Source: Mycobacterium sp. SMC-4 (GTDB lineage: Bacteria; Actinomycetota; Actinomycetes; Mycobacteriales; Mycobacteriaceae). From it: a stretch of 64,000 bases of DNA. This document shows, one piece after another, positions 12,898 to 27,057 of this stretch. The stretch lies in assembly GCF_025263265.1 (NCBI RefSeq), contig NZ_CP079869.1, positions 4,960,001 through 5,024,000 on the forward strand, read 5' to 3'. The notes below the pieces were generated by a model. That model ran no database searches. It was not told the origin of the DNA and saw only the letters and a list, made by a program, of their open reading frames with translations. The number at the start of each line of letters is the position of its first letter. The stretch's first letter is position 1. The position numbers and the translations under genes are program-made.

Positions 12898-12907
12898 GTC
12901 ATACCGC

Positions 12908-12913
12908 TACGAT
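12908..12913 (+). promoter_or_regulatory. Putative -10 box of a leaderless integrase promoter
   Basis: TACGAT fits TANNNT and ends 7 bases before the integrase ATG; no Shine-Dalgarno sequence is seen. The -35 position falls on the other side of the att core, so in the circular form it would come from the right end of the element, where TCGACA (25404-25409) would lie 18 bp away. Confidence 0.5.
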
Positions 12914-12920
12914 TACAACA

Positions 12921-14534
12921 ATGAAACAGCAGGTCACCGCGACGCGAGCTCTGATCGTAGTCAGGTTGTCCCGCGTCACCGAGGCCACCACTTCGCCGGA
13001 GCGGCAACTACAAGAGTGCCGCGACCTCTGCGCCCAGCGCGGCTACGAGGTCGTCGGCGTGGCCGAGGACTTGGACGTGAGCGCCGGCAAGACAACCCCC
13101 TTCGAGCGTGCAGCTCTGAAGGGATGGATCGGACTCGATGGCCGCGACGACCCCGGTCGATCGCACGAGTACGACGTGATCGTGGTCTGGCGCGTCGATC
13201 GGATCGTGCGGCGGTTGTTCGACCTGGCCGACCTCATCCGGTGGTGTCAGCGGTGGGACGTGGCGCTGGTGAGTGCCACCGAGCAGTTCATCGACCTGAC
13301 CCATTCGTTCGGCGACATGATCGCCTTGCTCGTCGCCAAGGTCGCAGAGATGGAACTGGCCGCGATCAGCGAGCGCAACCGCTCGGCTGCTCGAAGCAAT
13401 CTCCAGGCCGGGAAGTATCGCGGCGGTGTCCCGCCGTGGGGTTACCTCCCCGACAAGATCGACGGCGAATGGCGGCTGGTCCCCGACAAGGTCCAGTCCG
13501 ACGAGATCGCCGGCGTGGTCAAGCGAGTCCTGGCCGGAGACCCGTTGCGGGCCATCGCCCACGACATGACAGAGCGCGGTGTGTTGACCCCCCGCGACCG
13601 GCTGGCCCAGGTGAAGGGCAGAGAGGTCAAGGGCTACGCCTGGCACTCCGGCCCGCTCAAGCGTGCCCTGACGAACCAGGCTCTACTCGGGTATGTGATG
13701 TCAGGAGACGAGCCGATCCGCAACGATGACGGATCGCCGGTGGTTCGCTCTGCACCGATCCTCAGCCGCGAGGTGTTCGACCGCCTCGGCGTCGAGCTGG
13801 CAAGCCGGGAGAACCGCAAGGAACCGACGAAGCGAAGCACGGCGCTGCTGTTGCAGGTGATCTACTGCGGTGTCTGCGGTCGACCTGCCTACAGGCTGAA
13901 AGGCGGCAAAGGACGTACGCCTCGGTACCGGTGCGCGTCGGCGCAGTACAAAGTCAACTGCGGCAACCGGTCGATTCCGCTGTCCGAAGCCGACGACATC
14001 GTCGAGCAACTGGTCCTCGGGATGCTCGGGGAGTCGGAACGGCTGGAACGAGTCTGGGACTCGGGATCTGATCACACAGCGGAGCTGGACGAGATCAACT
14101 CGACGTTGGTGGACCTCACCGGCTTGATCGGCACCGCGGCCTATGGCGCCGGCACCCCGCAGCGTGCGGCGCTTGATCGGCGTATCGAAGGGCTGGCCGC
14201 GAGGCAGGCCGAGTTGTCGGCTGAGGAAGTCAAACCGTCAGGGTGGGCGTGGCAGCCCACCGGGGAGAAGTTCGGCGACTGGTGGGCTCGTCAGGACGTG
14301 GTGTCGAAGAACGTCTGGCTACGGTCGATGAACGTGCATCTCGGGTTCACCTATTCACTGGACGGTGGCAGACGGAGCGCCGACCTAGATCTCGGTGACC
14401 TGCAGACGCTGACTCAGCAGTTGAAGCCGACCGGTGCGGTCGCACGGTGGCAAGAGATTTTCGCGGCGATGACCGATAGCGGCGTTCAAGGTATCGAGCT
14501 CGGGTCAGGTGAGCCCAAGATCGTCCGCGAGTAG
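12921..14534 (+). CDS. int: Large serine integrase, Bxb1 type
   Basis: The 537-aa recombinase has an N-terminal resolvase domain with catalytic Ser17 in VVRLSRVTEATTSPERQ (Ser10 of Bxb1 integrase), a recombinase domain, a zinc ribbon with two cysteine pairs (CGVC near residue 316; RCAS and NCGN near 338-349) and a C-terminal helical region. The start resembles that of Bxb1 integrase, as do RNRSAA, GKYRGG, PPWGYLP and DGEWRLVPD. It catalyses attP x attB integration; excision normally needs a directionality factor, for which I see only unproven small candidates here. The gene begins 23 bases from the att core and has a leaderless-type -10. No disruption is visible, so the element may still be mobile. 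Confidence 0.97.
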   Translation: MKQQVTATRALIVVRLSRVTEATTSPERQLQECRDLCAQRGYEVVGVAEDLDVSAGKTTPFERAALKGWIGLDGRDDPGRSHEYDVIVVWRVDRIVRRLFDLADLIRWCQRWDVALVSATEQFIDLTHSFGDMIALLVAKVAEMELAAISERNRSAARSNLQAGKYRGGVPPWGYLPDKIDGEWRLVPDKVQSDEIAGVVKRVLAGDPLRAIAHDMTERGVLTPRDRLAQVKGREVKGYAWHSGPLKRALTNQALLGYVMSGDEPIRNDDGSPVVRSAPILSREVFDRLGVELASRENRKEPTKRSTALLLQVIYCGVCGRPAYRLKGGKGRTPRYRCASAQYKVNCGNRSIPLSEADDIVEQLVLGMLGESERLERVWDSGSDHTAELDEINSTLVDLTGLIGTAAYGAGTPQRAALDRRIEGLAARQAELSAEEVKPSGWAWQPTGEKFGDWWARQDVVSKNVWLRSMNVHLGFTYSLDGGRRSADLDLGDLQTLTQQLKPTGAVARWQEIFAAMTDSGVQGIELGSGEPKIVRE

Positions 14535-14633
14535 CTGCAGTTCCCACCGGACAAAGTCGATCGCAGCGACGACCGCTGGGTCGTCGGGGTCCAGCCCTTC
14601 GGCGCGGAGCGCGTCTCGCTCGATGTCATCCAT
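14505..14633 (-). CDS. Small acidic protein beside the integrase, unknown function
   Basis: A 42-aa reading frame, MDDIERDALRAEGLD at the start and LLADDLGLT at the end, overlaps the 3' end of int by 30 bases on the opposite strand. The composition (acidic, amphipathic helix, tryptophan in FVRWELQ) looks protein-like, and such small acidic frames are common next to integrases in actinophages. It follows the 61-aa membrane-protein gene by 37 bases on the same strand. No strong ribosome-binding site is visible. An excision cofactor is one possibility, but nothing in the sequence shows it. Confidence 0.55.
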   Translation of the reverse strand: MDDIERDALRAEGLDPDDPAVVAAIDFVRWELQLLADDLGLT

Positions 14634-14670
14634 ATCGGGTTAGACGCGGAGCGGCCACGTCCGGTTCCGC

Positions 14671-14856
14671 TTACGTGTCCCCTCGTTGGCCTCGGAAGAG
14701 CTCCACGACGCACGCGAACACCATCACGGCGTGCTCCCAGTCGGCCAGCAGTCCCGTGCCCGATGCCAAGGCGACGGCGATTGCGAGGACGATTCGGGGA
14801 TCGAGCTGGCTCGGGGGTGCGGGCTTCTGAGGCTCACGTGTCGGATCTATGCTCAC
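14671..14856 (-). CDS. Small single-pass membrane protein, unknown function
   Basis: A 61-aa product from GTG 14856, preceded by GAAGGA 7 bases upstream, which supports a real start. The N-terminus is Pro-rich and hydrophilic (MSIDPTREPQKPAPPSQ), followed by one hydrophobic helix, VLAIAVALASGTGLLADWEH, and a second weakly hydrophobic stretch (VMVFACVVELF). It resembles holin-like or superinfection-exclusion-type small membrane proteins in general shape only. It forms a probable two-gene minus-strand unit with the 42-aa gene, transcribed toward int. Confidence 0.6.
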   Translation of the reverse strand: MSIDPTREPQKPAPPSQLDPRIVLAIAVALASGTGLLADWEHAVMVFACVVELFRGQRGDT

Positions 14857-15264
14857 CGTTGGTTCCTTCGAGTTGTGCTGACGAGACGGGACTGCTGTTG
14901 CTGCCTCGCACCGTTCCAGCGGTGCGGGGCAGTTCTATCTGTAAGCGATGCTGCTGACAGCGGTGTAATTCACCCCTGCCCGGCTCACGTTAGACGTTGC
15001 TGCACTTAACGCAACCTGCCCCTGTGGATGAACCTGTGAGTTGGTGTTTGCAACTTGTGAATGGCACGCCCAAGACCTGGGGATAACCTGTTGGTTGACA
15101 AATTCAGGAAGAAGTATCTAGCCAGTTCCAGCGCCTTTTGCTGCCCCAAATCGAGATTCAGCCGGTGTGTCGCAACGTATCCAGCGCCCGGGCGTGTCGC
15201 TGCCTCGGCTAATGGAGGTGAACGCCAGTCGTCGGCGCCGAGTTGGGACTTTGCCACAACCGGC
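14857..15264. other. Non-coding interval between the small minus-strand genes and the regulator
   Basis: I see no convincing gene. It contains GTTGC-N10-GCAAC (14996-15015) and several similar A/T-richer words (CCTGTGGATGAACCTGTG and GGGGATAACCTGTTGG, about 15020-15095). These could be protein-binding sites (recombination arms, or a weak DnaA-box-like cluster). Confidence 0.35.
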
Positions 15265-15837
15265 TCAGGTCAATTTGCCCCGAACCTCGACTGAGATTGG
15301 CTTGACCTTCTTGGCAAGCTCGCTGACTTCGGCCAGCAGCTCTGCCGCTTTCTCGGTCGGTCGGCCTTCGCGCTTTCCTCGTGTCGTCGGCGTGAGCCAC
15401 CCGTCTGCACGCGCTTGCTTGATGTGGTGACGAACCGTCTCAGCCGGGACGGGTTCGCCGTCGCCACCTAGCGCCGCGCCTAACGTCTCGGCGACGTTGA
15501 CGTTCTGGCCGATGAGTTCGGAGTAGGCCAGGGCCAGCAGCGCCAGGTATTCCTCGGTGACCCTGCCGTGTCCCTCACGGTAGGCGGTTGCCATCCGGTC
15601 AAGCGTGTCGGTGTCTGCCGCCACTTCGGGGAACTGTGCGTTCACCCGCTGACGATTCCGATTCACCATCTCCTCACGTCGGAAATGGTCGAGCAACGAC
15701 CGTGTGGCGTCACGGACCACCTGCAGGTCCATCTCCCCGCCGTCTGCGGCTCGGATGTTAACGCCTACCAGGCGATTCCCGTCGTCGTGAACCAACTGGA
15801 CTCGGTAGGGCTTGACGATGTCGGTGGTCCTCTCCAT
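15265..15837 (-). CDS. Putative winged-helix regulator (candidate repressor of element 1)
   Basis: 190 aa from ATG 15837 (MERTTDIVKPYRVQLV). The N-terminal part is mixed alpha/beta. The middle is helical, with repeated hydrophobic and charged residues (EEYLALLALAYSELIGQNV). The C-terminal part (about 130-175) reads as a DNA-binding winged helix: PAETVRHHIKQARADGWLT followed by a basic Arg/Lys/Gly wing. It is transcribed away from the rightward operon, like repressors of temperate phages and SaPI Stl. Three 8-bp repeats lie directly upstream. In-frame alternative starts exist further upstream (around 15870). The repressor role is inferred from position and shape only. Confidence 0.6.
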   Translation of the reverse strand: MERTTDIVKPYRVQLVHDDGNRLVGVNIRAADGGEMDLQVVRDATRSLLDHFRREEMVNRNRQRVNAQFPEVAADTDTLDRMATAYREGHGRVTEEYLALLALAYSELIGQNVNVAETLGAALGGDGEPVPAETVRHHIKQARADGWLTPTTRGKREGRPTEKAAELLAEVSELAKKVKPISVEVRGKLT

Positions 15838-15884
15838 GCCCTTGACTCTACACCAGATCACCATGTCCATCGGTTCATCTTGAC

Positions 15885-15908
15885 ATACATAGGGACATAG
15901 TGAGATAG
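15885..15908. repeat. Three tandem 8-bp repeats in the divergent control region of element 1
   Basis: ATACATAG, GGACATAG and TGAGATAG follow one another without gaps (shared core A[C/G]ATAG). They overlap a possible rightward promoter: TTGACA at 15880-15885 with GATAGT about 18 bp on. They lie about 50 bases upstream of the regulator start, a likely operator. Confidence 0.6.
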
Positions 15909-16096
15909 TGATTCCGTCAGTGGATGGCGACCACAACAGAAGACGTAGGACCACCGGCCCCCTTCGGAGAGGGATGTCGCAGCCGCCCCGAGGGGGTGCG
16001 GTGTGGGGGTTCGAACAACTACATAGCGGAGACCGTGAGAGATACGGGCCGGGTGAGCGTTGGTTCTCAGATACGCCATGACCCCCGGTAGGGAGG

Positions 16097-16255
16097 GTGC
16101 GGCTACCGCCGCGTCCGACCAGGAACGGCGAGAGCCAGGTAACGGCACGGTCAGTCGAATTGTGGTTCGTCATCGACGGCACAAAGGGCCGGCAGGCCAA
16201 CCCGGAGGCAGCCGTTACTAGCTGCCAGCAACCCATCACCAGGAGAAGAAGTTGA
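16097..16255 (+). CDS. Possible small protein at the head of the rightward operon
   Basis: A 52-codon frame starts with GTG 16097, which directly follows GGGAGG with hardly any spacing. Its product contains ELWFVIDGTKGRQANPEAA and ends ITRRRS. The stop (TGA 16253-16255) overlaps a TTG at 16252 that has a strong AGGAGAAGAAG ahead of it and opens a 9-codon frame, whose own stop overlaps the GTG of the next gene (16278). The linked overlaps suggest coupled translation, but the frame is short and the start spacing is poor, so it may be non-coding leader. Confidence 0.3.
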   Translation: MRLPPRPTRNGESQVTARSVELWFVIDGTKGRQANPEAAVTSCQQPITRRRS

Positions 16256-16277
16256 CCATTCAGACAGTGAGCAGCAA

Positions 16278-16607
16278 GTGATCCCAGCAGCCGAGGCCGC
16301 TCCCGGCCTGTTCCCGATCGAGATCGTCCGACCGCATTGGTTGATCGCCCACGGCGACAGCGACCGTGTCGAAGTCCTGCGGAGTCCGCTCGTCCGCGAG
16401 ACGGACCCGTCCTACGAGCCGGTGCGCCGGTTCATCGCGGACCACGGCCTGGTTCTGGCCGCGCAGCAGAGCTTCCCCGATGAGAGCTTCATGTTCGGGT
16501 CGGTCGAGGTATCGGTGTTCGTCCCGCCGGCTGCGCGGGACGGTGTGCTCGCCGGCGCGGCGTTGTCGTTGCCGTGGCACGGTGCGGCGTTGGCAGGTGC
16601 GGAGTGA
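16278..16607 (+). CDS. Small unknown protein of element 1 (first of a coupled series)
   Basis: 109 aa from GTG 16278, which overlaps the stop of the preceding 9-codon frame. It contains IEIVRPHWLIAHGD and a hydrophobic core (SVEVSVFVPPAARDGVLAGA), and is followed by a GTGA overlap into the next gene. No membrane helix, signal or catalytic motif is recognised. Because it opens the operon that leads to the initiator-like gene, a role in replication or control of the element is plausible but unproven. I do not recognise the family. Confidence 0.6.
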   Translation: MIPAAEAAPGLFPIEIVRPHWLIAHGDSDRVEVLRSPLVRETDPSYEPVRRFIADHGLVLAAQQSFPDESFMFGSVEVSVFVPPAARDGVLAGAALSLPWHGAALAGAE

Positions 16608-17032
16608 GCATCACGATCGTCCAGTTGGCGACCCCGGGCGCCCGCGCCATAGCCAACGCAGACGTCGGCCAGTTGCTCCGCACCCCCGACGTCCCCGAGG
16701 ACCACGGTTTCGCCCGGGTGGCACGTCTGTTCTTCAAGCTGGCAGGCCTTCACCTGTGTCGGTACAACCGGGCTGGCATGAAGCGTGCCTGGCCCAGCGA
16801 CTGGGACGACTCAACCGTGCGGTTGCTCGACAGCGGCCGGGAGCTGATGGCCGAGAACGAGTTTGAGGTTTTCGCTCCGCTGGGGGTGTCGGTTGGGGAG
16901 ATGGGCGAGACGCCGTCGTGGGACGACGAGCTCGGCGACCTTTACGTCGAGATCCCCGGCGTCTGCTCGATCCGAGACGACGACCAGTTGACCGAGTTCC
17001 TGCTGAGGTGGAAGGACGGGGGTGTCGGGTGA
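16604..17032 (+). CDS. Unknown protein of element 1 replication operon
   Basis: 142 aa. GTG 16604 overlaps the preceding stop (GTGA), and its own stop overlaps the next GTG, so three consecutive genes are linked. The N-terminus, SITIVQLATPGARAIANADV, has a beta strand and helix; the C-terminal half is acidic and contains a segment (DLYVEIPGVCSIRDDDQLTE) that looks like a small mixed alpha/beta fold. The frame can be extended upstream to 16574, but that would overlap the previous gene more and lose the coupling. No family is recognised. Confidence 0.7.
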   Translation: MSITIVQLATPGARAIANADVGQLLRTPDVPEDHGFARVARLFFKLAGLHLCRYNRAGMKRAWPSDWDDSTVRLLDSGRELMAENEFEVFAPLGVSVGEMGETPSWDDELGDLYVEIPGVCSIRDDDQLTEFLLRWKDGGVG

Positions 17033-17199
17033 GTCGTCCCGATGTCCAGTCGTTCCGGTCGGACCACGGCAAGACGCTGTACCGCGTCTCGACGCCGACC
17101 AACAGCAAGCGTCTCATTTTCGACGCCGACGAGCTTCGGGCTCTCGGCTGCCAGATTGCAATCGTGCTCGGAGGCACCCGCGTTGACCGACCGACCTAA
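17029..17199 (+). CDS. Small unknown protein of element 1 replication operon
   Basis: 56 aa from GTG 17029 (MSRPDVQSFRSDHGKTLYRV). It overlaps the stop of the preceding gene by four bases and overlaps the start of the initiator-like gene at its 3' end, so it is embedded in a translationally coupled series. The sequence has a short beta-rich part (KTLYRVSTPTNSKRLIFD) and a helix ending in ALGCQIAIVLGG. It is too small for a confident family call. The coupling on both sides is the best evidence that it is a gene. Confidence 0.65.
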   Translation: MSRPDVQSFRSDHGKTLYRVSTPTNSKRLIFDADELRALGCQIAIVLGGTRVDRPT

Positions 17200-17986
17200 G
17201 TTCGACAAGTTCCGTTGGAACGATCACCCCACCCGCGTCGCGCTGACCGGCACAGCGGGAGCACTTGCCACGGTGATGTACAACCGCGCCAGTGCCGACG
17301 GGACCAAGGTGTACGGCTCTCGCAAGTCGCTGGCCGAACAACTGGGCGTCGACGTCAGGACCGTGAGCCGAGCGCGTAAGCGACTGGTCTCGCTGGGGTT
17401 GATCGAGCTCGTCTCCAGTGGATCGAGTTACGGCAAGCAGTCCAACGAGTACCGGCTAACGATGCCCCCGGAGCCTCATAGGACATCGGCACCTGAGGGG
17501 ACATCCTCAGGGGACATTTCGGAGCTGAGGGGACATTTATGTCCCACCTCAGGGGACACCAGTGTCCCCCCAATAGACCCGGGTAATAGACCCGGGTCTC
17601 TAACTACTAGAGGGGACATCCCAGATGCCCCCCCAGCAGTTGCCCCAACCAGATCAGGCTCTGGTGAGTCCGAGCCAGTCCTGTGGCCTGTCTCGTCCTC
17701 AACCAGCAATTGCGTCGAGGACTCCCCAACGGAGTCCGAGACTGGCGTCTCGTCCTCCTGGCGGGACATCTCCGATGTCCCCGCTACGGCGACCGATGAC
17801 GACGGTTACGAGGCATGGGTGCAGTCGCTCGTGGACAAGCACTTCGGTACGTCCGAGCCTGGCGACGGAGACGACCGAAGCCAGGGTTGGTCGCTTCTCC
17901 ACAACACCAAGTGCAGGGACGCCGGCCCGTTCCCCACGGAGCCGGTCGACTGCCCAGCGTGCAACCGATCGAGAGCTGGGCGATGA
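17183..17986 (+). CDS. Putative replication initiator with winged helix and internal origin-like repeats
   Basis: 267 aa from TTG 17183 (MTDRPKFDKFRWND), which has GGAGG 8 bases upstream. Residues about 25-95 form a winged-helix domain (SRKSLAEQLGVDVRTVSRAR then KRLVSLGLIELV) of the kind found in phage and plasmid replication proteins. The middle is a low-complexity linker whose DNA carries the palindromic repeats listed separately. The C-terminus has Cys residues in HNTKCRDAG and DCPACNRSRAGR, perhaps a small zinc-binding unit. An origin inside the initiator gene is the arrangement of lambda O. The stop overlaps the next start (ATGA). Initiator function is inference; a transcription factor is the main alternative. 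Confidence 0.6.
   Translation: MTDRPKFDKFRWNDHPTRVALTGTAGALATVMYNRASADGTKVYGSRKSLAEQLGVDVRTVSRARKRLVSLGLIELVSSGSSYGKQSNEYRLTMPPEPHRTSAPEGTSSGDISELRGHLCPTSGDTSVPPIDPGNRPGSLTTRGDIPDAPPAVAPTRSGSGESEPVLWPVSSSTSNCVEDSPTESETGVSSSWRDISDVPATATDDDGYEAWVQSLVDKHFGTSEPGDGDDRSQGWSLLHNTKCRDAGPFPTEPVDCPACNRSRAGR
17495..17781 (+). repeat. Cluster of GGGGACAT repeats and palindromes, putative replication origin of element 1
   Basis: GGGGACAT-type units occur at 17495-17504, 17508-17517, 17527-17536, 17552-17559 and 17611-17619, with a weaker one at 17479-17486. Three form near-perfect palindromes: GGGACAT-TT-ATGTCCC (17530-17545), GGGGACAC-CA-GTGTCCCC (17552-17569) and GGGACATC-TCC-GATGTCCC (17763-17781). 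All lie inside the initiator-like gene. Confidence 0.7.
17572..17597 (+). repeat. Two tandem 13-bp repeats within the origin-like cluster
   Basis: AATAGACCCGGGT is repeated exactly, head to tail (17572-17584 and 17585-17597), immediately before a short A/T-richer stretch (CTCTAACTACTAG). Origins often pair iterons with such direct repeats and a melting region. Confidence 0.65.
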
Positions 17987-18468
17987 GCACCACAGTCGAG
18001 CCCGAGAACTACGCGGCAATACGTGCCGCCGGAATCGCGGAGACACTCCGCACGAGACCGAGCGGCTACACCGAGCGAGACGCGGCCAACATCGACCGGT
18101 GGCGACAGGCGAACCCCAACGCGTTGCGTACGTGGACGACCACGTACGGCTGTGTCGTGGCCTTCGGCGGGATGCTGGTCTACTACGGCAGGTGCAAGCA
18201 CTGCGGTGATCTCGTGACGACCCGCCGGAAGATGGCCTACCGCCCGAACAACGGACGGTGGCCGTACACCTGCCAGGGCTGTCGCAGCCGGCGCGAGAAG
18301 AAGCACAACGCCGACGCCAAGCACCGCATGAGGGCGCTCCGTAGACGCACCGAGTTCCCGGCAGATGGTGACCCCTACGCCGAGAAGCGGCAGCAATTCG
18401 CATCAGCCGCCCGGGAACGCTACCTGGTTGAGTGCAAGCGGCTGGGCATCAAGCCCAAGCACGCGTGA
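17983..18468 (+). CDS. Small zinc-ribbon-like basic protein, unknown function
   Basis: 161 aa from ATG 17983, overlapping the initiator stop (ATGA). A four-cysteine module is clear: CKHC (about residue 70) and CQGC (about 98), separated by a basic loop (RRKMAYRPNNGRWPYT) and followed by a highly basic helix (RSRREKKHNADAKHRMRALR). This fits a nucleic-acid-binding zinc ribbon or treble clef. In this position it could be a replication accessory or a late-gene regulator; neither is shown. It is the last gene before two terminators, closing the early operon. Confidence 0.7.
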   Translation: MSTTVEPENYAAIRAAGIAETLRTRPSGYTERDAANIDRWRQANPNALRTWTTTYGCVVAFGGMLVYYGRCKHCGDLVTTRRKMAYRPNNGRWPYTCQGCRSRREKKHNADAKHRMRALRRRTEFPADGDPYAEKRQQFASAARERYLVECKRLGIKPKHA

Positions 18469-18580
18469 AATGCATCACCACAGGTAATTTTTTCTGTTCC
18501 TCGTTTTATCTATAACGGTGTAAGGGGTTCGCCTCCTCCTGGGCTGACTTCCTTTCGAGGGGTTGCTTCTCTGGCGAGAT

Positions 18581-18612: not shown

Positions 18613-18628
18613 TCTCTGGACCCCGCGT

Positions 18629-18699: not shown

Positions 18700-18870
18700 A
18701 TGGCCTCAAACATGTGCCGCAACGGTCGGCACCCCATCCGAGGACCACAGGACCGGATCGCCTCTTCGGGAGGATGCCGGCGCTGCAACCTTGAAGCTGG
18801 CGCACGATACCGCCAGCGCAACCGCGAAGCGCGGGATCTCGTCCGCGCTCTACAACTGGCAGTGGCCTGA
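18700..18870 (+). CDS. Small Cys-rich protein upstream of the tape measure gene
   Basis: 56 aa from ATG 18700, with a very strong ribosome-binding site (GGAAGGAGG) 7 bases upstream. It has a Cys near the start (MASNMCRNGRHPI), a CRRC pair near residues 27-30 and a basic helix (RYRQRNREARDLVRAL). This pattern of a short zinc-knuckle-like protein beginning CxNGRHP resembles small proteins seen in actinophages. Its stop overlaps the tape measure start (TGATG), so the two are co-translated. The function is unknown; it might serve as a chaperone or regulator of the following gene. Confidence 0.7.
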   Translation: MASNMCRNGRHPIRGPQDRIASSGGCRRCNLEAGARYRQRNREARDLVRALQLAVA

Positions 18871-21149
18871 TGAGCGATTCCGTCGAAGTTGGACGGATCT
18901 CGGTCAAGGTCACCCCCGACACCAAGGACTTTCGTAGGAAGCTGCTGGGCGATCTGAGGAAGATCGAGCAGTCGATCAAGTGTGTGATCGACGTTGAGCC
19001 CAACATAAAGGGCTTCCGGCAGAAGGTGGACGCCGCGACCAAGGGCCTCAAGGCGCAGGTCGACTTGGAGACCAACGCGGCCCACCTCCGACAGCGCGTG
19101 CAGACAGCGACCAAAGGCCTCAAGGCCGAGGTCGACATCGGCGTCAAGAGAGGGACGCTCGATCGGCTCGCCACGTCGCTAGCCAACATGCAAGGCCCGT
19201 CGTTCGGGTCAGGCATCAACCCGGCGGGGTACGCGGTGATCGCCGCCGGCATTGCCGCTATCACCCCGCTACTCTCTGGCGCGCTGGGAGTCATCACCAC
19301 AGCGCTGCTGACGCTCCCCGGAATCATCACCGCCGTAGGTGTCCCGATCGCAGCGTTGACGCTGGGAATCGACGGATTCAAGGCGGCTGCCGAGAGACTC
19401 AAAGACCCGTTTGAAGCCCTCCGAGGGCTGATGTCGGAGCGCGTCGAAGATCAGTTCACTCCTGTGTTCGACAAGCTGGGAGAGGTCTTCCCGATGCTCA
19501 GGTCGTCTCTGCCGTCTGTGACGCAGGGCCTGGCCGACATGGCGCAGTCACTCGTGGACACGATCACCTCACCGGAGAACCTGTCGAAGGTCGAAGCCAC
19601 GATCAACGACATCGCCCAGGCGCTGAAAGACGCGACCCCGGGAGTCAACGGGTTCACATCGGGATTCCTTGACCTCATCAAGGGATTCACCGGCAACCTG
19701 CCCGGTCTTACGGACTGGCTCAACACGACCGGCCAGTCGTTCAAGGACTGGGCGGCAGACTTCACCCGCAGGGACTGGTTTACCGGAAAATCGCAGTTCG
19801 ACCAGGCACTAGGTGGTCTCGGCGACACGCTGAAGATGCTCGGTGACGGGCTGGTCGACATCGGCGGCAAGGCATTGGACTTCTTCTCCGACCCCGAGAA
19901 GATCAAGTCGTTCAAGGCCGAACTCGACGGCCTGATCGCGACGCTCTCGACACTGGTCGACCTGTCGAACAGTCTCGCCGGTGTCATGTCCAAGATCCCG
20001 GGGTTCTCGGACGGTGAGGCCAACAGCCCGATGGACTTCGCGCCGATCCAAATTCAGTTGATCAAGGAACAGCTGAGCAAGGTCGACTGGTCGGGAGTGT
20101 GGGCCGGTCTCACGCACGCCGCCGCAACCGCGTTCGCGGACGTAGCCGCATCGGCTGGTGTCATGATCGCCGGTGTCCGGGAGAAAGCGGGCGAGATTCT
20201 CTCGGTTGTGCAACAGGCATGGGCCGGAATCCCCGGTATCGCAGCCAGCGTCTGGGCACAGGTCGTCACCTCGGTATCGACTTCCATCAGCCAGGCAGTG
20301 CAGTCGGTCGTCACCGGAGGGAGCCAGATCCTCGCGGAGGTCGGCTCGTGGCCCGGGAAGATCACCGGAGCTCTCGGCAACCTCGGCGGTCTACTCGTCG
20401 GCGCCGGCAAGGCGCTGATGGACGGCCTGCTGAACGGCATCAAAGCAGGCGCACAGGCTGTCTACGACTTTGTCAGCGGCATCGCCGGGAAGATCGCGGC
20501 CTTGAAAGGTCCGCTGCCGTACGACCGCAAGGTGTTGATCCCCAACGGTGAGGCACTCATGCAAGGTCTGAGAACCGGCCTGGCGACCGGCTTCGAGTCG
20601 GTACTCGACATGGCCCGGTCGATGGCCGAGCGGATCTCGAAAGCCATGCAAGAGGGCACCGACCTGACCACCATGCTCGGTGGGAAGAAGCTCCCCGACT
20701 TGGCGAAGATGCTCGACACCATCGACGAGCAGAACAAAGAGCTCAAAGTCGAATTGAACTCCACCGAGGACAAGTCGCTGCGGGACACCTTGCGAGGCAA
20801 CCGCGAGCAGCTCCAGTCGATGCGAGATCTTCTGTCGCTGCAGAAAGAGAAGATCGACAACGAGAGCAAGTACGGCGAAGTCGTCAGCGACAACAAGTCG
20901 ATGTACGAGGAGCTCGGACGAGCGGTCTTCGAGGGACCGATCAACGCGATCGAGTCCGTAGCCGGCGCAACCGGCGGTCAGTTCCTGCAGGACTTGGGAA
21001 TCGGCGGTCAGGGTGCGATCTCGCAGGCGCTCCAGCAGGGCCTGCAGTTCGGCAAGCAGTTCGTCTTCAACGTCGCGTCGATGGATGAAGCCCTGACGGC
21101 CCAGAACACCCTCACGGCGAAGGAATCGCTGCAGTACTACCGGCGCTGA
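18870..21149 (+). CDS. Phage tail tape measure protein (short, 759 aa)
   Basis: Tape measure proteins set the tail length of siphophages and are ejected with the DNA. Evidence: a coiled-coil N-terminus with internal repeats (ATKGLKAQVDLET and ATKGLKAEVDIGV), a long hydrophobic segment at about 119-165 (ITPLLSGALGVITTALLTLP), further Ala/Gly-rich amphipathic helices in the middle, and a charged C-terminal coiled coil (about 625-680). The pattern SVEVGRISVKVTPDTKDF at the start is typical of actinophage members. At 759 aa it is short for mycobacterial siphophages. No tail tube, chaperone frameshift pair, minor tail, capsid or portal gene adjoins it, which is odd for a prophage but compatible with a satellite that reshapes a helper's tails. 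Confidence 0.93.
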   Translation: MSDSVEVGRISVKVTPDTKDFRRKLLGDLRKIEQSIKCVIDVEPNIKGFRQKVDAATKGLKAQVDLETNAAHLRQRVQTATKGLKAEVDIGVKRGTLDRLATSLANMQGPSFGSGINPAGYAVIAAGIAAITPLLSGALGVITTALLTLPGIITAVGVPIAALTLGIDGFKAAAERLKDPFEALRGLMSERVEDQFTPVFDKLGEVFPMLRSSLPSVTQGLADMAQSLVDTITSPENLSKVEATINDIAQALKDATPGVNGFTSGFLDLIKGFTGNLPGLTDWLNTTGQSFKDWAADFTRRDWFTGKSQFDQALGGLGDTLKMLGDGLVDIGGKALDFFSDPEKIKSFKAELDGLIATLSTLVDLSNSLAGVMSKIPGFSDGEANSPMDFAPIQIQLIKEQLSKVDWSGVWAGLTHAAATAFADVAASAGVMIAGVREKAGEILSVVQQAWAGIPGIAASVWAQVVTSVSTSISQAVQSVVTGGSQILAEVGSWPGKITGALGNLGGLLVGAGKALMDGLLNGIKAGAQAVYDFVSGIAGKIAALKGPLPYDRKVLIPNGEALMQGLRTGLATGFESVLDMARSMAERISKAMQEGTDLTTMLGGKKLPDLAKMLDTIDEQNKELKVELNSTEDKSLRDTLRGNREQLQSMRDLLSLQKEKIDNESKYGEVVSDNKSMYEELGRAVFEGPINAIESVAGATGGQFLQDLGIGGQGAISQALQQGLQFGKQFVFNVASMDEALTAQNTLTAKESLQYYRR

Positions 21150-21199
21150 GCGGGCAACGGACTGTGTCCGTGCCCTTCGGCGCTCAGATGGACAGGGAG

Positions 21200-21278
21200 C
21201 CCCGGAGATCACCTCTCCGGGGTTGCCCCCCGTCATACACCGCAATACCCGCCGGCGGCCCGGTCAGGCCGCTGTTTT
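21200..21278 (+). terminator. Hairpins after the tape measure gene, including a probable terminator
   Basis: CCCCGGAGA / TCTCCGGGG (21200-21208 and 21214-21222) forms a perfect 9-bp stem. A second stem, GCGGCC / GGCCGC (21255-21260 and 21267-21272), is followed by TGTTTT and is the better terminator. A third GC-rich hairpin lies at 21282-21304, just before the next ribosome-binding site. Confidence 0.7.
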
Positions 21279-21335
21279 CATGCCCTGGGCACCGTGCCCG
21301 GGGCGAGCAACCCCCTGAAAAGGAGAACGCCCCAG

Positions 21336-22127
21336 ATGAACACCTACACCCAACCCCACCACATCGCTGACGATGTCAGCCGCTGGACCAGCCTCGGCGT
21401 CGAGCTGCCCGCCGAGCTTGAGGAGGCCATCGAGGTCTACGAGACACTGAAATACACCGAAGTGGGCCACCGCCCGGTGTTCGAACTAACCGAGGTCACC
21501 ACAGCCAACGCCGAGAAGCTCATCCGCGCCTACGCCGACGAGCTCGTGCTGTCTGCCTCGAATGGCGGGCTATCTCCGCTGGAGAAGGCGAAGAACGCAG
21601 CCGTGGATTCCGCAGCACGCCGGGTCAACACCGTGGCGGGCCAGGCGGTCCGGTCGATCATCGACCAGTTGACCTCGAGATTCGAGAACCACGTCGAGGC
21701 GTACGCCGAAGCGGTGCTGGCGCTGCCGCGTGAGATCACCTCCGAGTCACTGGTGGCAGCCGGTCCTGACGCCGTCGCCTTGTACGGAACCGCACAGCAG
21801 GAAGCCGCTCACCTCAACCAGATTCGGAACTGGGTCGCCGGCCTCAACCAACTGCCAGGCGGCGGTAGCCGTGCTCACGAGAACGTGATCACCATCCTTC
21901 GGCCCGCTGACAGCCGCGAGCTGATCGAGCTCGACAAAGCCAACGTCCGCGTTGACGCGACGCTGGCCGCGCTCAACCCGGTGTGGGTCGCCGCCGTACG
22001 GCTCGGTGTGCAGTTCGCGATCAACACCCCGCGTGAAGCAGCCGAGCTTCGCAAGCGGCTGGAGAAGGACATGCGAGACCAGCTCCGGCAGAAGCATCAG
22101 AACGTGGCCTACCTGCCCACCGCCTGA
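21336..22127 (+). CDS. Unknown helical protein of element 1 (263 aa)
   Basis: The start at ATG 21336 is supported by AAGGAG 10 bases upstream; the frame's earlier codons are not needed. The protein is mostly helical, with Ala/Glu-rich segments (ELEEAIEVYETLKYTE, PREAAELRKRLEKDMRDQLR), no membrane helix, no Cys cluster and no enzymatic motif. It stands alone between terminators, so it is probably strongly and separately expressed. The position after the tape measure gene suggests a structural or assembly role (for example scaffold-like or capsid-size redirecting, as satellites encode), but I have no sequence proof of that and do not recognise the family. Confidence 0.75.
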   Translation: MNTYTQPHHIADDVSRWTSLGVELPAELEEAIEVYETLKYTEVGHRPVFELTEVTTANAEKLIRAYADELVLSASNGGLSPLEKAKNAAVDSAARRVNTVAGQAVRSIIDQLTSRFENHVEAYAEAVLALPREITSESLVAAGPDAVALYGTAQQEAAHLNQIRNWVAGLNQLPGGGSRAHENVITILRPADSRELIELDKANVRVDATLAALNPVWVAAVRLGVQFAINTPREAAELRKRLEKDMRDQLRQKHQNVAYLPTA

Positions 22128-22149
22128 CCAACACCGCACCATCGGGAAC

Positions 22150-22183
22150 AGCCCTCAGCTTGACGCTGGGGGCTGTTCTTCTT
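22150..22183 (+). terminator. Rho-independent terminator after the 263-aa gene
   Basis: AGCCCTCAGC / GCTGGGGGCT (22150-22159 and 22165-22174, one G-U pair) with loop TTGAC, followed by GTTCTTCTT. Confidence 0.85.
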
Positions 22184-22200
22184 CTACCGCAGAGGATCTC

Positions 22201-22548
22201 ATGCACACACGTGCTGAGGACCGGGAACGAGAGTTCCTGGCCTACATCGACTCAACCGCCGGGTACAACGCCGCGATCGTCGAGCGCGGCGGTATCCCGT
22301 GGCACGACGGCGACATCGAACGCCGTCGAGCACTCGCTAGGCAGCTTGGGATAGCTGCCGACGCTTCGGGACTCGACTTCCGTCGAGCCCTGTTCATGCG
22401 CCGCTACCAACGACCAGAGCCACCCAAGGATCTGGCGCCGATCAAGTCCATCAAGTCCTACCAACGAAAGCAGACCGATGAAGCGACAGCCCAGCGCGCC
22501 GAAGGTGTTCATGCAACATGTACGAGCCCGACAGAGCAGGCAGCCTGA
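22201..22548 (+). CDS. Unknown hydrophilic protein of element 1
   Basis: 115 aa from ATG 22201, with AGAGGA shortly upstream. The first 80 residues look folded (DREREFLAYIDSTAGYNAAI, then RRALARQLGIAADAS), while the end is polar and probably disordered. The last 71 bases overlap the next reading frame. No family, membrane or metal-binding signature is visible. It follows a terminator by fewer than 20 bases, so its promoter must lie within or before that hairpin, or it depends on readthrough. Confidence 0.65.
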   Translation: MHTRAEDREREFLAYIDSTAGYNAAIVERGGIPWHDGDIERRRALARQLGIAADASGLDFRRALFMRRYQRPEPPKDLAPIKSIKSYQRKQTDEATAQRAEGVHATCTSPTEQAA

Positions 22549-22882
22549 GCCCGAGCCGATCGAAGGAAGCTTCGAGCAGGCCATCGCCAGGAAGCTGCAG
22601 AGTCGTGGAATCATTGCTGTCCCTGGCCTTCCCAGTGAGCCGGAACCGCAGTGGTACGACCTGGCTATCGAGATGAACCGTCGTCAGGCTGAGTCCGAGG
22701 CGCAGCGTCAGGCCGAACGCGAAGCCGCAGAGGCAGACCAGAACCGACCTCCCAGCCTTCCGGCGCAGATCGTCTCAGCGATCGCCGGCAAGACCGGGAA
22801 CCAGATTCCGCTCAACGGCGCAGCCGTCCTGAAGGCAGCACTTGCCGGCGGTCAGGGCACCGTCAACGGCGCTGCCAGGTAG
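22478..22882 (+). CDS. Unknown coiled-coil protein of element 1
   Basis: 134 aa from ATG 22478; a later ATG at 22511 would give a shorter overlap with the preceding gene. A Pro/Glu-rich linker (QPEPEPIEG) leads into helical segments and a strong coiled coil (MNRRQAESEAQRQAEREAAEA). The C-terminus (PLNGAAVLKAALAGGQG) is hydrophobic. Composition and codon use resemble its neighbours, which supports a real gene despite the overlap. Function unknown. Confidence 0.65.
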   Translation: MKRQPSAPKVFMQHVRARQSRQPEPEPIEGSFEQAIARKLQSRGIIAVPGLPSEPEPQWYDLAIEMNRRQAESEAQRQAEREAAEADQNRPPSLPAQIVSAIAGKTGNQIPLNGAAVLKAALAGGQGTVNGAAR

Positions 22883-22892
22883 GTAGTGGCAG

Positions 22893-23570
22893 CTACTGAC
22901 CTCGGGCCGCTCGCACCTGAAAGGTGATCTCGCCTGACGGCGACATTGTGCCCCCGACGTCAGCGAACCTGTAGCAGCTTTCCATCAGGCCTACCAATTC
23001 GACGTAGCGGACTGGCTTCTCAGCGCCGATGGTCAGCTCATCTTCCCGGGGGTTGATTCCGAATGGATCTCCGGGGCCGAACGGCAGCCTCCCTGCACGC
23101 AGATTGTCGGCCATTAGCCGATCATCGGCGTGTTGCATTGCATCGCGTATGGCGTTAAGGCGGTTGGAGGCATCTTGGTCAGGCAAGTCAGCAGCACTAC
23201 CTATTCCCTTGCCGAAAAGGCGTTTCGCTGCGGTAATCGCGCGGTGAGTCGCATCGACACAGGTATCCAGATGGTCGGTTCCGCACCCAGCGAGGTGAGC
23301 TTTCCGAACCCAGACCGAATCGCCTTCCTCGCTCTCATCGATCGAGTCCGCTTCGGCATACGCATTACGAGCGGCGTTGTACTCGCGGATCGCTTTCTCG
23401 GTCAGGCGAACCATGTGGACATACGTCCATCTGATGCCGTGAGTTTTCAGCTCGTCGGGAATCGCGTTTAGTGCCACAAGTATTGTCCGCTGCAGCATCA
23501 CCGATGGAAGGTGGTCAACGGGAGGCAGTACGGGCGGCGGCAACCGCGTCGCCTGAGAGGTGTCTGTCAC
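22893..23570 (-). CDS. HEPN-like protein in reverse orientation (candidate cargo gene)
   Basis: 225 aa from GTG 23570, with AGAGGGT directly before it. It is one of only a few minus-strand genes in the element and converges on the preceding gene 10 bases away. Helical segments dominate. Around residues 138-150 the sequence LNAIRDAMQHADDRL contains Arg142-x4-His147, the Rx4-6H pattern of HEPN ribonucleases, in a context like the R-N-x-x-E-H-x-D-E-R signature of HEPN-fold proteins. Many HEPN proteins act in abortive infection or toxin-antitoxin systems, so an antiphage role is conceivable. The motif is short and could be coincidental; no partner antitoxin is evident. Confidence 0.55.
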   Translation of the reverse strand: MTDTSQATRLPPPVLPPVDHLPSVMLQRTILVALNAIPDELKTHGIRWTYVHMVRLTEKAIREYNAARNAYAEADSIDESEEGDSVWVRKAHLAGCGTDHLDTCVDATHRAITAAKRLFGKGIGSAADLPDQDASNRLNAIRDAMQHADDRLMADNLRAGRLPFGPGDPFGINPREDELTIGAEKPVRYVELVGLMESCYRFADVGGTMSPSGEITFQVRAARGQ

Positions 23571-23967
23571 ACCCTCTAGGCTATTAGCCTCGGCGAGTCC
23601 CGGCTGTGTTTCGGCTGCACGGCAGACCTTGGCCGGGGTGCGCCAGGGTGGTCGGGGGCGTTGAGCACCGTCAGTGGGACAACCCGGTATGGCCGCGACG
23701 TACATCCGCACCCCCAGGGGGTGACCCCTACCCCCGGGCGTTTGACCGGTTGGTTATGCGGATGAGCCACCGTATGCGAATCGCATAACCGATTTTCCGA
23801 CCACGGCCAGCCAGGAGGCCGCAGCGACTGGCGCAGCCAACTACTCGCCGCCGCAGCGGTATTCACCCGGCGCGGTCGACCAACGACCCACCGGGACCGG
23901 CCGGAATAACCCCTCTGAAAGGCGCTCAAACCGCCTCGAAACACCCTCGAAAGGAAGACAAGCATCG
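23571..23967. promoter_or_regulatory. Divergent control region with palindromes before the terminase small-subunit gene
   Basis: No gene seen. GGTTATGCG (23752-23760) and CGCATAACC (23782-23790) form a perfect 9-bp inverted repeat, and inside it TATGCG-AAT-CGCATA (23773-23787) is a second palindrome that shares the right arm. The nested sites sit between two divergent genes and look like operators. A ribosome-binding site for the terminase gene, GAAAGGAAG, precedes 23968. Confidence 0.55.
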
Positions 23968-24348
23968 ATGAACAAGCCGAAGATGCCACGGGGCGAGTTC
24001 GGTCCCGAAGGCAAGAAGCTCTGGACCGAGTTGACCGAGGTGTTCAACTTCACCGACGAGCCGGCCAAGCTCCGCGTCCTCTACGACGCGTGCAAGCTGG
24101 CCGACACGATCAAGCGCATGGACGACGAAGCGGCGAGCGCGCCGCTAGTGGTCGAAGGATCGACCGGACAGCCGGTGATCCACCCGTGCATTTCGCAGGC
24201 GAACTCAGCGCGGTCACTGATGGCCACGCTGCTGGGCAAGCTCGGACTACCCGACGCCGACCACTCGGTCGCGGAGAAGAAGGCACGACGCACACGGTCG
24301 GCACTCATCGCAGCCCAGGTCAGGTGGGGCTTGGGGACCGGGTCGTGA
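23968..24348 (+). CDS. terS: Phage terminase small subunit (P27-like)
   Basis: 126 aa. The start MNKPKMPRGEFGPEGKKLW, the helical core with ALRVLYDACKLADTIKRMD-like spacing (here KLRVLYDACKLADTI), the conserved central Val-Glu-Gly-Ser-Thr-Gly-Gln-Pro segment and the SARSLMATLLGKLGLPD motif match actinophage P27-family terminase small subunits, which recognise the packaging site on DNA. The large subunit is absent. Satellites of the SaPI/PICI type carry exactly such an orphan small subunit to redirect a helper's packaging machine. GAAAGGAAG lies upstream, and the stop overlaps the next gene's GTG. Confidence 0.85.
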   Translation: MNKPKMPRGEFGPEGKKLWTELTEVFNFTDEPAKLRVLYDACKLADTIKRMDDEAASAPLVVEGSTGQPVIHPCISQANSARSLMATLLGKLGLPDADHSVAEKKARRTRSALIAAQVRWGLGTGS

Positions 24349-24707
24349 CCACCCGTTGGAACGACACCAGGAACCTAACCCTCGCGGAGTCGCTGGCGCA
24401 GCGACTGCCAGACCACCTGCTCGATCTCGGGGAGTACGCCGGCGACGGCATCGCCGGATTGAGCCGCTACCGCAGCGACCTGGCCGCGTGGGTCGCGCAG
24501 GAGACCGGTCTCACCGCAGCCGAGTACTCCCGGACCACCGAGGGACTCCGCGCTCGCAAGGACGACCCTGCTGAGCAGCTCGTCTCGGAGATCATGAACA
24601 TCATCGGCGCGGACGACTTCGCGCGCTGGTACCGAGTGCGGCTGACCAGGGCAAGCAGGTGCTTGCACAACGAGGCCGTCACCTGTGCCTGCTCAGACGG
24701 GGGCTAA
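24345..24707 (+). CDS. Unknown protein coupled to the terminase small subunit
   Basis: 120 aa from GTG 24345, overlapping the terminase stop (GTGA), hence translationally coupled. It is helical and hydrophilic (NLTLAESLAQRLPDHLLDLG; LRARKDDPAEQLVSEIMNII) and ends with a Cys-rich tail (HNEAVTCACSDGG). No family recognised. The tight coupling suggests a packaging- or assembly-related partner of the terminase small subunit. Confidence 0.65.
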   Translation: MTTRWNDTRNLTLAESLAQRLPDHLLDLGEYAGDGIAGLSRYRSDLAAWVAQETGLTAAEYSRTTEGLRARKDDPAEQLVSEIMNIIGADDFARWYRVRLTRASRCLHNEAVTCACSDGG

Positions 24708-24713
24708 TCCCGA

Positions 24714-25310
24714 TCACAGCCGTGATACGACCAATTTGGCCAATGAAACCACTTCGGCCTGACTAGGCTCGGGCCGCAGGAGGGGCGTTACCGTGACACG
24801 GACGTCGTCGTGTTCGATACAGACGGTTCGGTAGCTGTCCATGTCCTCGGTGGAGGGACCGACCCACCACGCGGGTATACCAAGACCGTCGAACGGAATG
24901 AGCGTTGCGTCCATCGGAAAAGCAGCCTCGCCATTCCTGCACCTAGGGTCGACGATTGAGCCCTCAACCACGAAATTTCTGGCCGCGACACTAACTGTCA
25001 ATAAACCCCCACTTGGTTCATTCCAGCTGCATTGCGCCACAAAATTGCTGCCCGCGCGTTCGGGTTGATCGCCCGTCGGTTCTTCTACGGTAGCCCCTGT
25101 GCTTTGCCGTATCTCGGCAGTTGTCAGCAACACGCAGGGGTTAGGCAGCTCCTGCGACGAGCGTTGCGACGTGGATGTTTGGGTAGCGGCGGTCTGGTCC
25201 GGAATCGAGGACGCTTCTGACTGCGATTGAGAACCGCTTCCGCAGCCGGCAGCTACGCAGGCCAAAGCGAACATTACAAAGACGCCACCCCTGAAAAACC
25301 GCCCTTCCAT
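24714..25310 (-). CDS. DUF3558-like lipoprotein (cargo of element 1)
   Basis: 198 aa from ATG 25310. The signal peptide MEGRFFRGGVFVMFALACVA is followed by lipobox AAGC (Cys23), then a Ser/Thr/Gln-rich linker and a domain beginning LPNPCVLLTTAEIRQSTG, the hallmark of DUF3558 lipoproteins of mycobacteria. Cys residues in CSWNEP and RCRNGE could pair. It should sit on the outer face of the membrane. It lies at the right end of the element, in the orientation of the disrupted flp operon, so flp transcription could express it in the lysogen. Surface lipoproteins on phage elements sometimes exclude superinfecting phages; that role is only a hypothesis here. Confidence 0.8.
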   Translation of the reverse strand: MEGRFFRGGVFVMFALACVAAGCGSGSQSQSEASSIPDQTAATQTSTSQRSSQELPNPCVLLTTAEIRQSTGATVEEPTGDQPERAGSNFVAQCSWNEPSGGLLTVSVAARNFVVEGSIVDPRCRNGEAAFPMDATLIPFDGLGIPAWWVGPSTEDMDSYRTVCIEHDDVRVTVTPLLRPEPSQAEVVSLAKLVVSRL

Positions 25311-25381
25311 AGCGAGGAACCTTACTGCGGCGTTCTGGTAACAACGATCGGAAGTGAGGATTCCATCTTTCGATCGCAGAG

Positions 25382-25495
25382 TTACAACCACCGGGTGTAA
25401 CTCTCGACAGTCGAGTACTCGACTGTCGACATCCCGTCGTCGTCGACCGCCAGCACGATGACGCGCGCCTGCAGTTCCCGCAACTGTTCCCTCAT
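25382..25495 (-). pseudogene. flp: 5' part of the flp major pilin gene with element-derived tail
   Basis: From ATG 25495 the frame reads MREQLRELQARVIVLAVDDD then Gly-Met-Ser-Thr-Val-Glu-Tyr up to the junction at 25415. It then runs into the element and stops after ten foreign codons (TAA at 25382-25384; 37 aa in total). It keeps the class III prepilin cleavage motif (Gly then Met-Ser-Thr-Val-Glu) but has lost the hydrophobic pilin helix, so it cannot form pili. The remainder of the gene is at 12775-12897. Confidence 0.92.
25415..25417. other. attR core of element 1 (GTA)
   Basis: The sequence ...ctcgacagtcgaGTActcgactgtcgac... joins the element (left) to flp (right). The core sits inside a near-palindrome, GTCGACAGTCGAGTACTCGA, partly of host origin. 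Recombining with attL restores codons Val-Glu-Tyr-Ala-Ile-Gly of flp. Confidence 0.85.
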
Positions 25496-27051: not shown

Positions 27052-27057
27052 GACTAC

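What the first reader, a model, noticed from the sequence alone, without database searches (positions are those of the whole stretch)
12898..25417. A satellite-like mycobacterial element with integrase, regulator, origin, tape measure and orphan small terminase
Element 1 has intact Bxb1-type integrase, a divergent regulator with operator-like repeats, an initiator-like gene containing an origin-like cluster, operons separated by terminators, a complete tape measure gene and a terminase small subunit. Capsid, portal, large terminase, other tail and lysis genes are absent. SaPI/PICI satellites combine integrase, Stl-type repressor, replication module and small terminase. The intact frames and tidy operons argue against a decaying prophage. 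A mycobacterial satellite of this layout is not one I know. Satellite status is inference.
Basis: partly seen in the sequence, partly recalled or inferred. Interest (0 to 1): 0.9.

Follow-up and report, generated by a model that had tools for sequence, protein, structure and literature searches.

The report
Mycobacterial satellite parasitising cluster A phages
A 12.5-kb piece of mobile DNA sits inside a pilus gene of a mycobacterium and carries the packaging signal of a common group of mycobacterial viruses plus a few altered virus parts, so it most likely spreads by hijacking those viruses' particles.

Summary
It does not look like a prophage remnant: eight measured relatives at the same site span 9.8-13.2 kb and show no Peaches-type portal, large terminase, major tail protein or lysin. 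The main new evidence is a cos site at 23705-23790. A profile built only from the ends of three cluster A phages finds it (E=2.6e-7). The cut-site half is phage-like; the right arm is replaced. In 46 such cos loci from same-genus genomes, all 30 with the satellite-type small terminase lack the phage arm; 13 of 16 without it keep it. A small protein (22478-22882) ends in a PLNG motif seen otherwise, in the fetched DNA, only in its relatives and cluster A scaffolds, suggesting a competing scaffold. The 759-residue tape measure is shorter than its closest named-phage homologues (866-937). Best reading: a cluster A satellite that redirects the helper terminase, probably remodels its head, and brings its own tail ruler. 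Mycobacterial candidate PICIs, satellite tape measures and twelve capsid-bearing 11-kb GenBank relatives were on record; this capsid-less type is a new variant. Nothing was tested at the bench.

The parts
12898..25417 (.). Whole element, 12,520 bp, between GTA cores 12895-12897 and 25415-25417
12775..12897 (-). 3' part of the host Flp-pilin gene (DUF4244), outside the element
   Evidence: read, stop checked; same kind of junction in relatives
25382..25495 (-). Start of the host Flp-pilin gene (host part down to about 25415) running into the element
   Evidence: PF14029 0.0018
12921..14534 (+). Large serine integrase, 537 aa
   Evidence: relatives in 26 of 297 genomes at E<=1e-60
14671..14856 (-). 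Small ORF, 61 aa, function unknown
   Evidence: ribosome-binding site and codon use; no family
15265..15870 (-). HTH regulator, 201 aa, candidate repressor
   Evidence: phrog_11473; cluster C4 of 11 loci
16278..16607 (+). GP70-family gene, 109 aa
   Evidence: PF17429 4.3e-11
16604..17032 (+). 142-aa ORF, unknown
17042..17986 (+). Replication initiator (phage O-like); start codon uncertain
   Evidence: phrog_270 9.2e-12; 53% identical to the WillG HTH gene over residues 15-198; my codon model missed it
17496..17782 (.). Candidate replication origin: GGGGACA repeats inside the initiator gene
17959..18468 (+). Small zinc-ribbon-like protein (start 17959 or 17983)
   Evidence: weak matches only
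18700..18870 (+). 56-aa ORF directly before the tape measure
   Evidence: phrog_27003 1.7e-11
18870..21149 (+). Tape measure protein, 759 aa
   Evidence: phrog_305 9.7e-230; 49% identity to Benedictvirus TMPs
21336..22127 (+). 263-aa all-helical protein (o263), hallmark of the capsid-less type
   Evidence: relatives in 8 of 297 genomes; no match in the phage collection; AF2 pLDDT 89
22201..22548 (+). 115-aa ORF conserved in both satellite types
   Evidence: cluster C6
22478..22882 (+). o134: candidate competing scaffold with C-terminal PLNG motif (start 22478 or 22511)
22893..23570 (-). 225-aa ORF, no family; possible cargo
23705..23790 (+). cos site; phage-like core 23744-23761 (phage ends abut at the position equivalent to 23756|23757); replaced right arm with ATGCGAATCGCAT at 23774-23786
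23968..24348 (+). Terminase small subunit, Terminase_4 (P27) type, 126 aa
   Evidence: PF05119 9.3e-7; phrog_1496 1.7e-17
24345..24707 (+). 120-aa ORF overlapping the TerS stop
   Evidence: phrog_8310 0.0023; relative next to TerS in L058
24714..25310 (-). DUF3558 lipoprotein, 198 aa; candidate gene expressed in the integrated state
   Evidence: PF12079 1.8e-8; start re-set

Best explanation
It is a cos-type phage satellite whose helpers are cluster A-like mycobacteriophages. At rest the serine integrase holds it in the Flp-pilin gene and the divergent HTH regulator keeps it quiet. When a cluster A phage infects or is induced, it excises, replicates from its own initiator and origin, and its DNA is cut at a helper-like cos core by the helper's large terminase. 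The element's own small terminase binds the element's own right arm of cos and so directs the motor to satellite DNA. The scaffold-like o134, perhaps with o263, shifts the helper's capsid protein to small heads, and the element's tape measure goes into the tail, giving a chimeric, probably shorter tail. Shown by sequence: the ends, the integrase and other open genes, the cos homology, the terminase-arm link, the PLNG motif, a tape measure shorter than its closest named-phage homologues, and recurrence without most phage virion genes. Inferred: induction, excision, binding of TerS to the arm, small heads and chimeric tails.
For: cos: a profile from three phage ends hits the window at 23708-23777, E=2.6e-7, with no hit at E<0.5 in 2.49 Mb of reversed sequence. 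The core GACCGGTYGGTTATGCGG is found once, with 0 mismatches (0.23 expected at up to 3 mismatches). In all 33 loci with both cos and TerS the two are on the same strand. Terminase-arm link: 46 same-genus loci give TerS+/arm- 30, TerS+/arm+ 0, TerS-/arm+ 13, TerS-/arm- 3; loci not used in setting the rule give 15/0/6/3, p=6e-4. The window and L058 have TerS 80% identical and arms that are the two strands of one near-palindrome. Scaffold motif: PLNG in the last 50 residues of 8 of 8 called o134 proteins and of 0 of the other 721 called proteins, two prophage stretches left out; the extended motif has 40 six-frame hits in 198 loci including the window, every one in an o134 relative or a cluster A-type scaffold and 3-20 residues from its stop, overlapping loci counted repeatedly. 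Size and content. TMP. GenBank relatives of 10.9-11.1 kb.
Against: No induction, excision or particle has been seen for this element, and no helper is known in its genome (own assembly not held). The PLNG motif is short (hhalign probability 1.1%, P 0.048); 7 of 20 distinct phage scaffold candidates lack it, one of them a wrong frame, and bare PLNG occurs 3 times in 517,174 six-frame residues of 13 other loci. o263 matches no known fold, so its head role rests on position and on mutual exclusion with capsid genes (0 of 9 against 30 of 47), which shared ancestry could explain. TMP lengths overlap: satellites 616-759, phages 691-1000, up to 1003; two of the closest TMPs, 770 aa, lie on bacterial or unnamed contigs whose context I did not read. 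L199 has neither detectable TerS nor the phage arm; L196 and L206 fail the strict rule too, by one base each. L052, L060, L061, L063 and L064 share the integrase family but have no recognisable cos.
Confidence: 0.84

Rival explanations
1. A deletion remnant of a cluster A-like prophage that has kept integrase, TMP and TerS.
For: TMP and cos are homologous to those of cluster A phages; most structural genes are absent.
Against: Eight same-site relatives in different species genomes span 9.8-13.2 kb and share genes not found in the phage collection (o263: no match in 50,697 records). Peaches TerS does not match. The frames are open, and the cos arm fits the TerS type.
Confidence: 0.06
2. A satellite of cluster A phages in which o263 and o134 do something other than head-size control (replication, gene control); only packaging and tail are hijacked.
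For: o263 has no fold or family match; the o134 motif is short; elements such as L058 have neither capsid nor o263.
Against: The extended PLNG motif is confined to o134 relatives and cluster A-type scaffolds in the fetched loci; no locus has both o263 and capsid.
Confidence: 0.3
3. The TMP is not a virion part but an inhibitor that poisons helper tail assembly.
For: Tail assembly is a known target of satellite-encoded defence (Rta of PLE11; PMC12987554, section 8 read).
Against: The TMP aligns over 94-100% of its length with several phage TMPs, has moved repeatedly between phages and satellites (at least 4 label changes forced) and recurs in the GenBank 11-kb relatives. In PLE11 the satellite TMP is a virion part (same paper).
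Confidence: 0.12
4. A pilus-gene switch: the element's main role is reversible inactivation of the Tad pilus.
For: It splits the Flp-pilin gene, and unrelated inserts split the same gene in G001, G223 and G152.
Against: It carries packaging and tail genes that such a switch would not need; the target may simply be a conserved sequence.
Confidence: 0.05

Closest known systems
Candidate mycobacterial PICIs (mSystems 2023, PMC10654092; abstract and passages seen)
   Same: Small integrated phage-derived elements in Mycobacterium, some with serine integrases, terminase and scaffold genes
   Different: Defined there as integrase plus major capsid gene; this element has no recognisable capsid. 'Tape measure', 'small terminase' and 'terminase small' do not occur in the text searched; no helper cos is described in the passages seen
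'Mycolicibacterium phages' WillG, Anya, Alyssa1, Maddie1, SarahF and seven others (OR387110-OR387121)
   Same: 10.9-11.1 kb; in the five annotations read: terminase, serine integrase, HTH gene, TMP; cos profile found across the joined ends of four of the five
   Different: Own capsid, scaffold and neck genes; integrase 30% identical (WillG); o263 absent from all phage records; o134 not found in the three searched
PLE satellites of Vibrio cholerae (Nature 2026, PMC12987554; section 8 and passages read)
   Same: Encode a TMP; PLE11's differs from the helper's by 95 residues and gives about 10 nm shorter, chimeric tails
   Different: Different host, helper and packaging context; no sequence comparison made here
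SaPI and enteric PICI redirection (PMC6739421, PMC9026076, PMC5644958; abstracts seen)
   Same: Redirect the helper: Rpp-TerS complex proposed to bind a PICI site placed like the phage site but different in sequence; SaPI1 CpmB competes with the helper scaffold for the capsid protein
   Different: Here the element brings its own TerS with a matching cos arm; the proposed scaffold mimic shares only a short C-terminal motif with scaffolds of a different phage group
Cluster A mycobacteriophages (Peaches, ElTiger69, Herbertwm; cluster label recalled)
   Same: Homologous cos core and TMP; scaffold C-terminal motif
   Different: About 50 kb with virion and lysis genes; TerS of another type; phage right arm of cos

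Membership tests
Phage-inducible chromosomal island (PICI) in the broad sense (features recalled) | Site-specific integrase and discrete att ends | tested here: met
Phage-inducible chromosomal island (PICI) in the broad sense (features recalled) | Divergent regulator and replication module | tested here: met
Phage-inducible chromosomal island (PICI) in the broad sense (features recalled) | No complete virion or lysis gene set | tested here: met
Phage-inducible chromosomal island (PICI) in the broad sense (features recalled) | Packaging signal used by a helper phage | tested here: inconclusive
   present by homology; use by a helper not tested
Phage-inducible chromosomal island (PICI) in the broad sense (features recalled) | Induced, replicated and packaged by a helper | not testable with these tools
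   needs infection experiments
Capsid-forming PICI / published mycobacterial candidate PICI | Own major capsid gene | tested here: not met
   o263 is predicted all-helical
PLE family | Satellite-encoded TMP replacing the helper's in virions | tested here: inconclusive
   TMP present; incorporation untested
PLE family | Sequence relationship to PLE genes | not tested
   no PLE sequence was compared
SaPI | Small terminase of its own | tested here: met
SaPI | Stl-type repressor released by a phage protein | not testable with these tools
   HTH regulator only
Cluster A prophage | Portal, large terminase, capsid, major tail genes | tested here: not met
   the same test finds them in L034 and L035

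The most novel reading that the evidence does not exclude
One 12.5-kb element attacks three assembly steps of one helper group: it keeps the helper's cut site but swaps the recognition arm of cos to fit its own small terminase, diverts the head with a scaffold mimic that copies the helper scaffold's C-terminal tail, and replaces the tail ruler. Cluster A satellites as a whole fall into two packaging strategies ('copy the whole cos' or 'swap the arm and bring your own TerS') and two head strategies ('own capsid' or 'competing scaffold').
Probability: 0.5. Interest if true: 0.87.

Novelty: new variant of a known kind. Interest (0 to 1): 0.78.

Why it matters
Cluster A is among the most heavily sampled mycobacteriophage groups (recalled), and this work gives it a large set of candidate satellites: 46 cos sites at E<=1e-6 in 45 of 297 genomes (19 of those genomes supplied sequences to the model), only two of which adjoin phage lysis or repressor genes in genomes with a structural-gene prophage. 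The terminase-arm pairing can be tested directly in vitro. Satellites that change tail assembly were shown only recently, in Vibrio (PMC12987554). These elements could let tail substitution, head-size control and terminase redirection be studied together in a tractable host. A cos profile also finds elements that a capsid-based search would miss.

Tried and rejected

Dropped or unexamined rows: L204 and L205 (cos beside prophage genes) are left out of the arm and capsid counts; the GenBank satellites and the window are left out of the 46-locus count, while one search's 49 loci include two GenBank satellites and the window. (30 loci, p=4.9e-7) contains near-copies (WillG, Anya, SarahF; L125, L126). 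Of the 64 cos sites listed, 16 weak ones (E>1e-5) were not fetched. Of the 26 integrase genomes, G060 was never fetched and G008 only later. Several loci lie on short contigs. WillG's own joined ends gave no cos hit, because the core is missing from that record; four other records did. L130's TMP length of 616 depends on my choice of start.
Full report
The element. A 12,520-bp insert lies at 12898-25417 between two GTA cores. The host gene on either side is the Flp pilin (DUF4244) of the tad locus: TadC-like (T2SSF) and TadB-like genes follow on one side, a TadE-like gene (named by position and relatives) on the other. Relatives at the same site show the same kind of junction, mostly with GGTGTAA/TTACACC arms on the element side of the core; an uninterrupted copy is seen in L087 and L088. 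Gene order: integrase; divergent HTH regulator; GP70-type gene; O-like initiator with clustered GGGGACA repeats; small genes; tape measure; o263; o115; o134; cos; small terminase; o120; and, on the other strand near the right end, a DUF3558 lipoprotein.

Not a prophage remnant. Of 297 same-genus genomes, 26 have an integrase relative at E<=1e-60 and 8 an o263 relative at E<=1e-5. I fetched 32 stretches of up to 20 kb around these and the TMP hits. Elements of this integrase family lie in the tad site in ten of them (in L053 only one flank is in the stretch), plus L049, where the contig ends. In the eight with both pilin halves recognised (L011, L015, L050, L051, L057, L059, L060, L063) the halves are 9.8-13.2 kb apart. 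Peaches portal, large terminase, major tail protein and lysins give no hit in any of these; the same test finds portal, large terminase and major tail protein in the prophage stretches L034 and L035. Of the 8 genomes with a TMP match at E<=1e-20, six carry it in a locus without those genes and two in such a prophage. A scan of named genomes gave 17 loci with the integrase family, among them M. iranicum, M. vulneris, M. parafortuitum, M. litorale F4 and M. vanbaalenii, and also Tsukamurella and Gordonia; the four loci of the last two genera showed no cos.

Two head types. Many relatives carry an HK97-type capsid gene (PF05065, 1.8e-27 in L059) and a scaffold gene, some also neck proteins. The window and eight others carry o263, eight of these nine also o134; the o263 copy of L016 is frame-broken. 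In 56 loci, two prophage loci left out, none has both: o263 only 9, capsid only 30, neither 17 (Fisher p 4e-4, ancestry and near-copies not corrected). o263 is confidently predicted as all-helical (pLDDT 89) without a structural match. o134 ends in PLNG followed by xx[VILM][LVMIAN]xA; in 198 loci including the window this motif has 40 six-frame hits, every one in an ORF that matches the o134 or the phage-scaffold profile, 3-20 residues before the stop (overlapping loci are counted repeatedly). Of 20 distinct phage scaffold candidates, 13 have PLNG near the C-terminus, six do not, and one (L121) is a wrong frame. A short shared motif does not prove homology (hhalign probability 1.1%), but it is what a SaPI1 CpmB-like competitor for the helper capsid might look like (PMC5644958, abstract seen).

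The cos site. A conserved non-coding stretch upstream of TerS proved to match the ends of cluster A phages: the right ends of Herbertwm, ElTiger69 and Peaches carry a C/G-rich block and GACCGG..GGTWA, their left ends begin TGCG, and the window reads the two halves through. blastn of window 23705-23800 against 50,697 phage records (E limit 10) gave 256 records, 250 of them Mycobacterium phages; of the 60 listed, 56 match at the very right end of 48-54 kb records, three are M. aichiense satellites, and one (terelak) matches inside its record. A profile from only the three phages finds the window (E=2.6e-7) and a site in most satellite loci searched; reversed sequence gives none. Cluster labels are recalled; the records name genera.

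Terminase and arm. Right of the cut, the three phages have YACGGGTTT. Satellite loci that encode the P27-type TerS lack it; those without TerS mostly have it. In the first set of 30 the split was 23 TerS+/arm-, 0 TerS+/arm+, 0 TerS-/arm-, 7 TerS-/arm+. A cos model (R1) then found sites in 59 of 297 genomes at E<=0.01; the 46 with E<=1e-6 lie in 45 genomes. Stretches round the new ones gave, by the rule already fixed, 15 TerS+/arm-, 0 TerS+/arm+, 6 TerS-/arm+, 3 TerS-/arm-. All 46 same-genus loci give 30/0/13/3 in that order. The exceptions are L196, L199 and L206; the first and last miss the rule by one base. I read this as a swap of the TerS-binding half of cos (cosB in lambda-like phages; naming recalled). 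The enteric PICI model is close in logic: same cut site, different binding site (PMC9026076, abstract seen).

The tape measure. The closest named-phage TMPs by identity are 937 aa (ElTiger69, UnionJack; 49%), and by tree those of Peaches and PP, 866 and 1003 aa (98/95 support). Proteins of 968 and 770 aa of about 50% identity also exist on contigs I did not examine. Satellite TMPs measured 616-759 aa and phage TMPs 691-1000 (PP 1003), so the tendency to be shorter is not absolute. The tree forces at least four changes between phage and satellite labels, i.e. repeated exchange. In PLE11 the satellite TMP is in the virion and the tail is shorter (PMC12987554, section 8 read); that paper's Extended Data Fig. 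10 legend lists PLE-like elements and cf-PICIs with putative tmp genes, and neither 'mycobacter' nor 'actinobacter' occurs in it. Putative E. coli satellites with capsid and tape-measure genes are also in print (PMC10448857, passages seen).

Known relatives. Twelve GenBank records (OR387110-OR387121) are 10.9-11.1 kb 'Mycolicibacterium phages' from M. aichiense. The five annotations I read list terminase, head-tail adaptor and stopper, serine integrase, an HTH gene, capsid, tape measure and hypothetical proteins, and no portal, large terminase by that name, major tail or lysis gene. I take them to be satellites sequenced from lysates; the records do not say so. One search for M. aichiense phages in the held library found no paper on them. 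Herbertwm, isolated on M. aichiense in the same town, has an 807-aa TMP against WillG's 651. Ten literature searches were made; no title or abstract start shown was about cluster A satellites using cos, or about this insertion site.

Judgement. That this is a cluster A satellite is well supported by sequence. The head and tail steps are inference. It is a new variant of a known kind.

Noticed in passing
window 26878-44695: A second stretch separates tadB from a tadA-like ATPase gene (T2SSE, 44699-45781): an IS21-type pair (35373-37792), an IrrE/M78-type regulator, two tyrosine recombinases and a DUF1254/DUF1214 protein, plus GGDEF-like, AraC-like and sulfatase-like genes judged by eye. The tad locus thus seems interrupted twice.
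   Followed up: partly
L084 (G001), L085 (G223), L086 (G152): Inserts of about 9.3, 7 and 4.3 kb without any of the profiled genes split the same Flp-pilin gene: it looks like an integration hotspot.
   Followed up: partly
L011:4963-5487: An o263-type satellite carries a homologue (58%) of the Peaches immunity repressor, so it may affect immunity to cluster A phages.
   Followed up: no
L065:3254-5203 and L201 near 7200: Two capsid-type satellites carry a homologue of the cluster A minor tail protein gp27 (66% in L065), hinting at further tail substitution.
   Followed up: no
L054, L055, L181, L182, L184, L193, L198: Loci with a full phage-like cos and none of the profiled structural genes: possibly minimal cos-only satellites; several lie on short contigs.
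   Followed up: no
L010:6576-7181, L012:11662-12204: Satellites without TerS have an endonuclease VII/HNH-like gene just after cos, where Herbertwm and ElTiger69 have an HNH gene.
   Followed up: no
window 24714-25310: DUF3558 lipoprotein at the right end; lipoproteins of some other temperate phages block DNA injection (recalled), so superinfection exclusion is a testable role.
   Followed up: no
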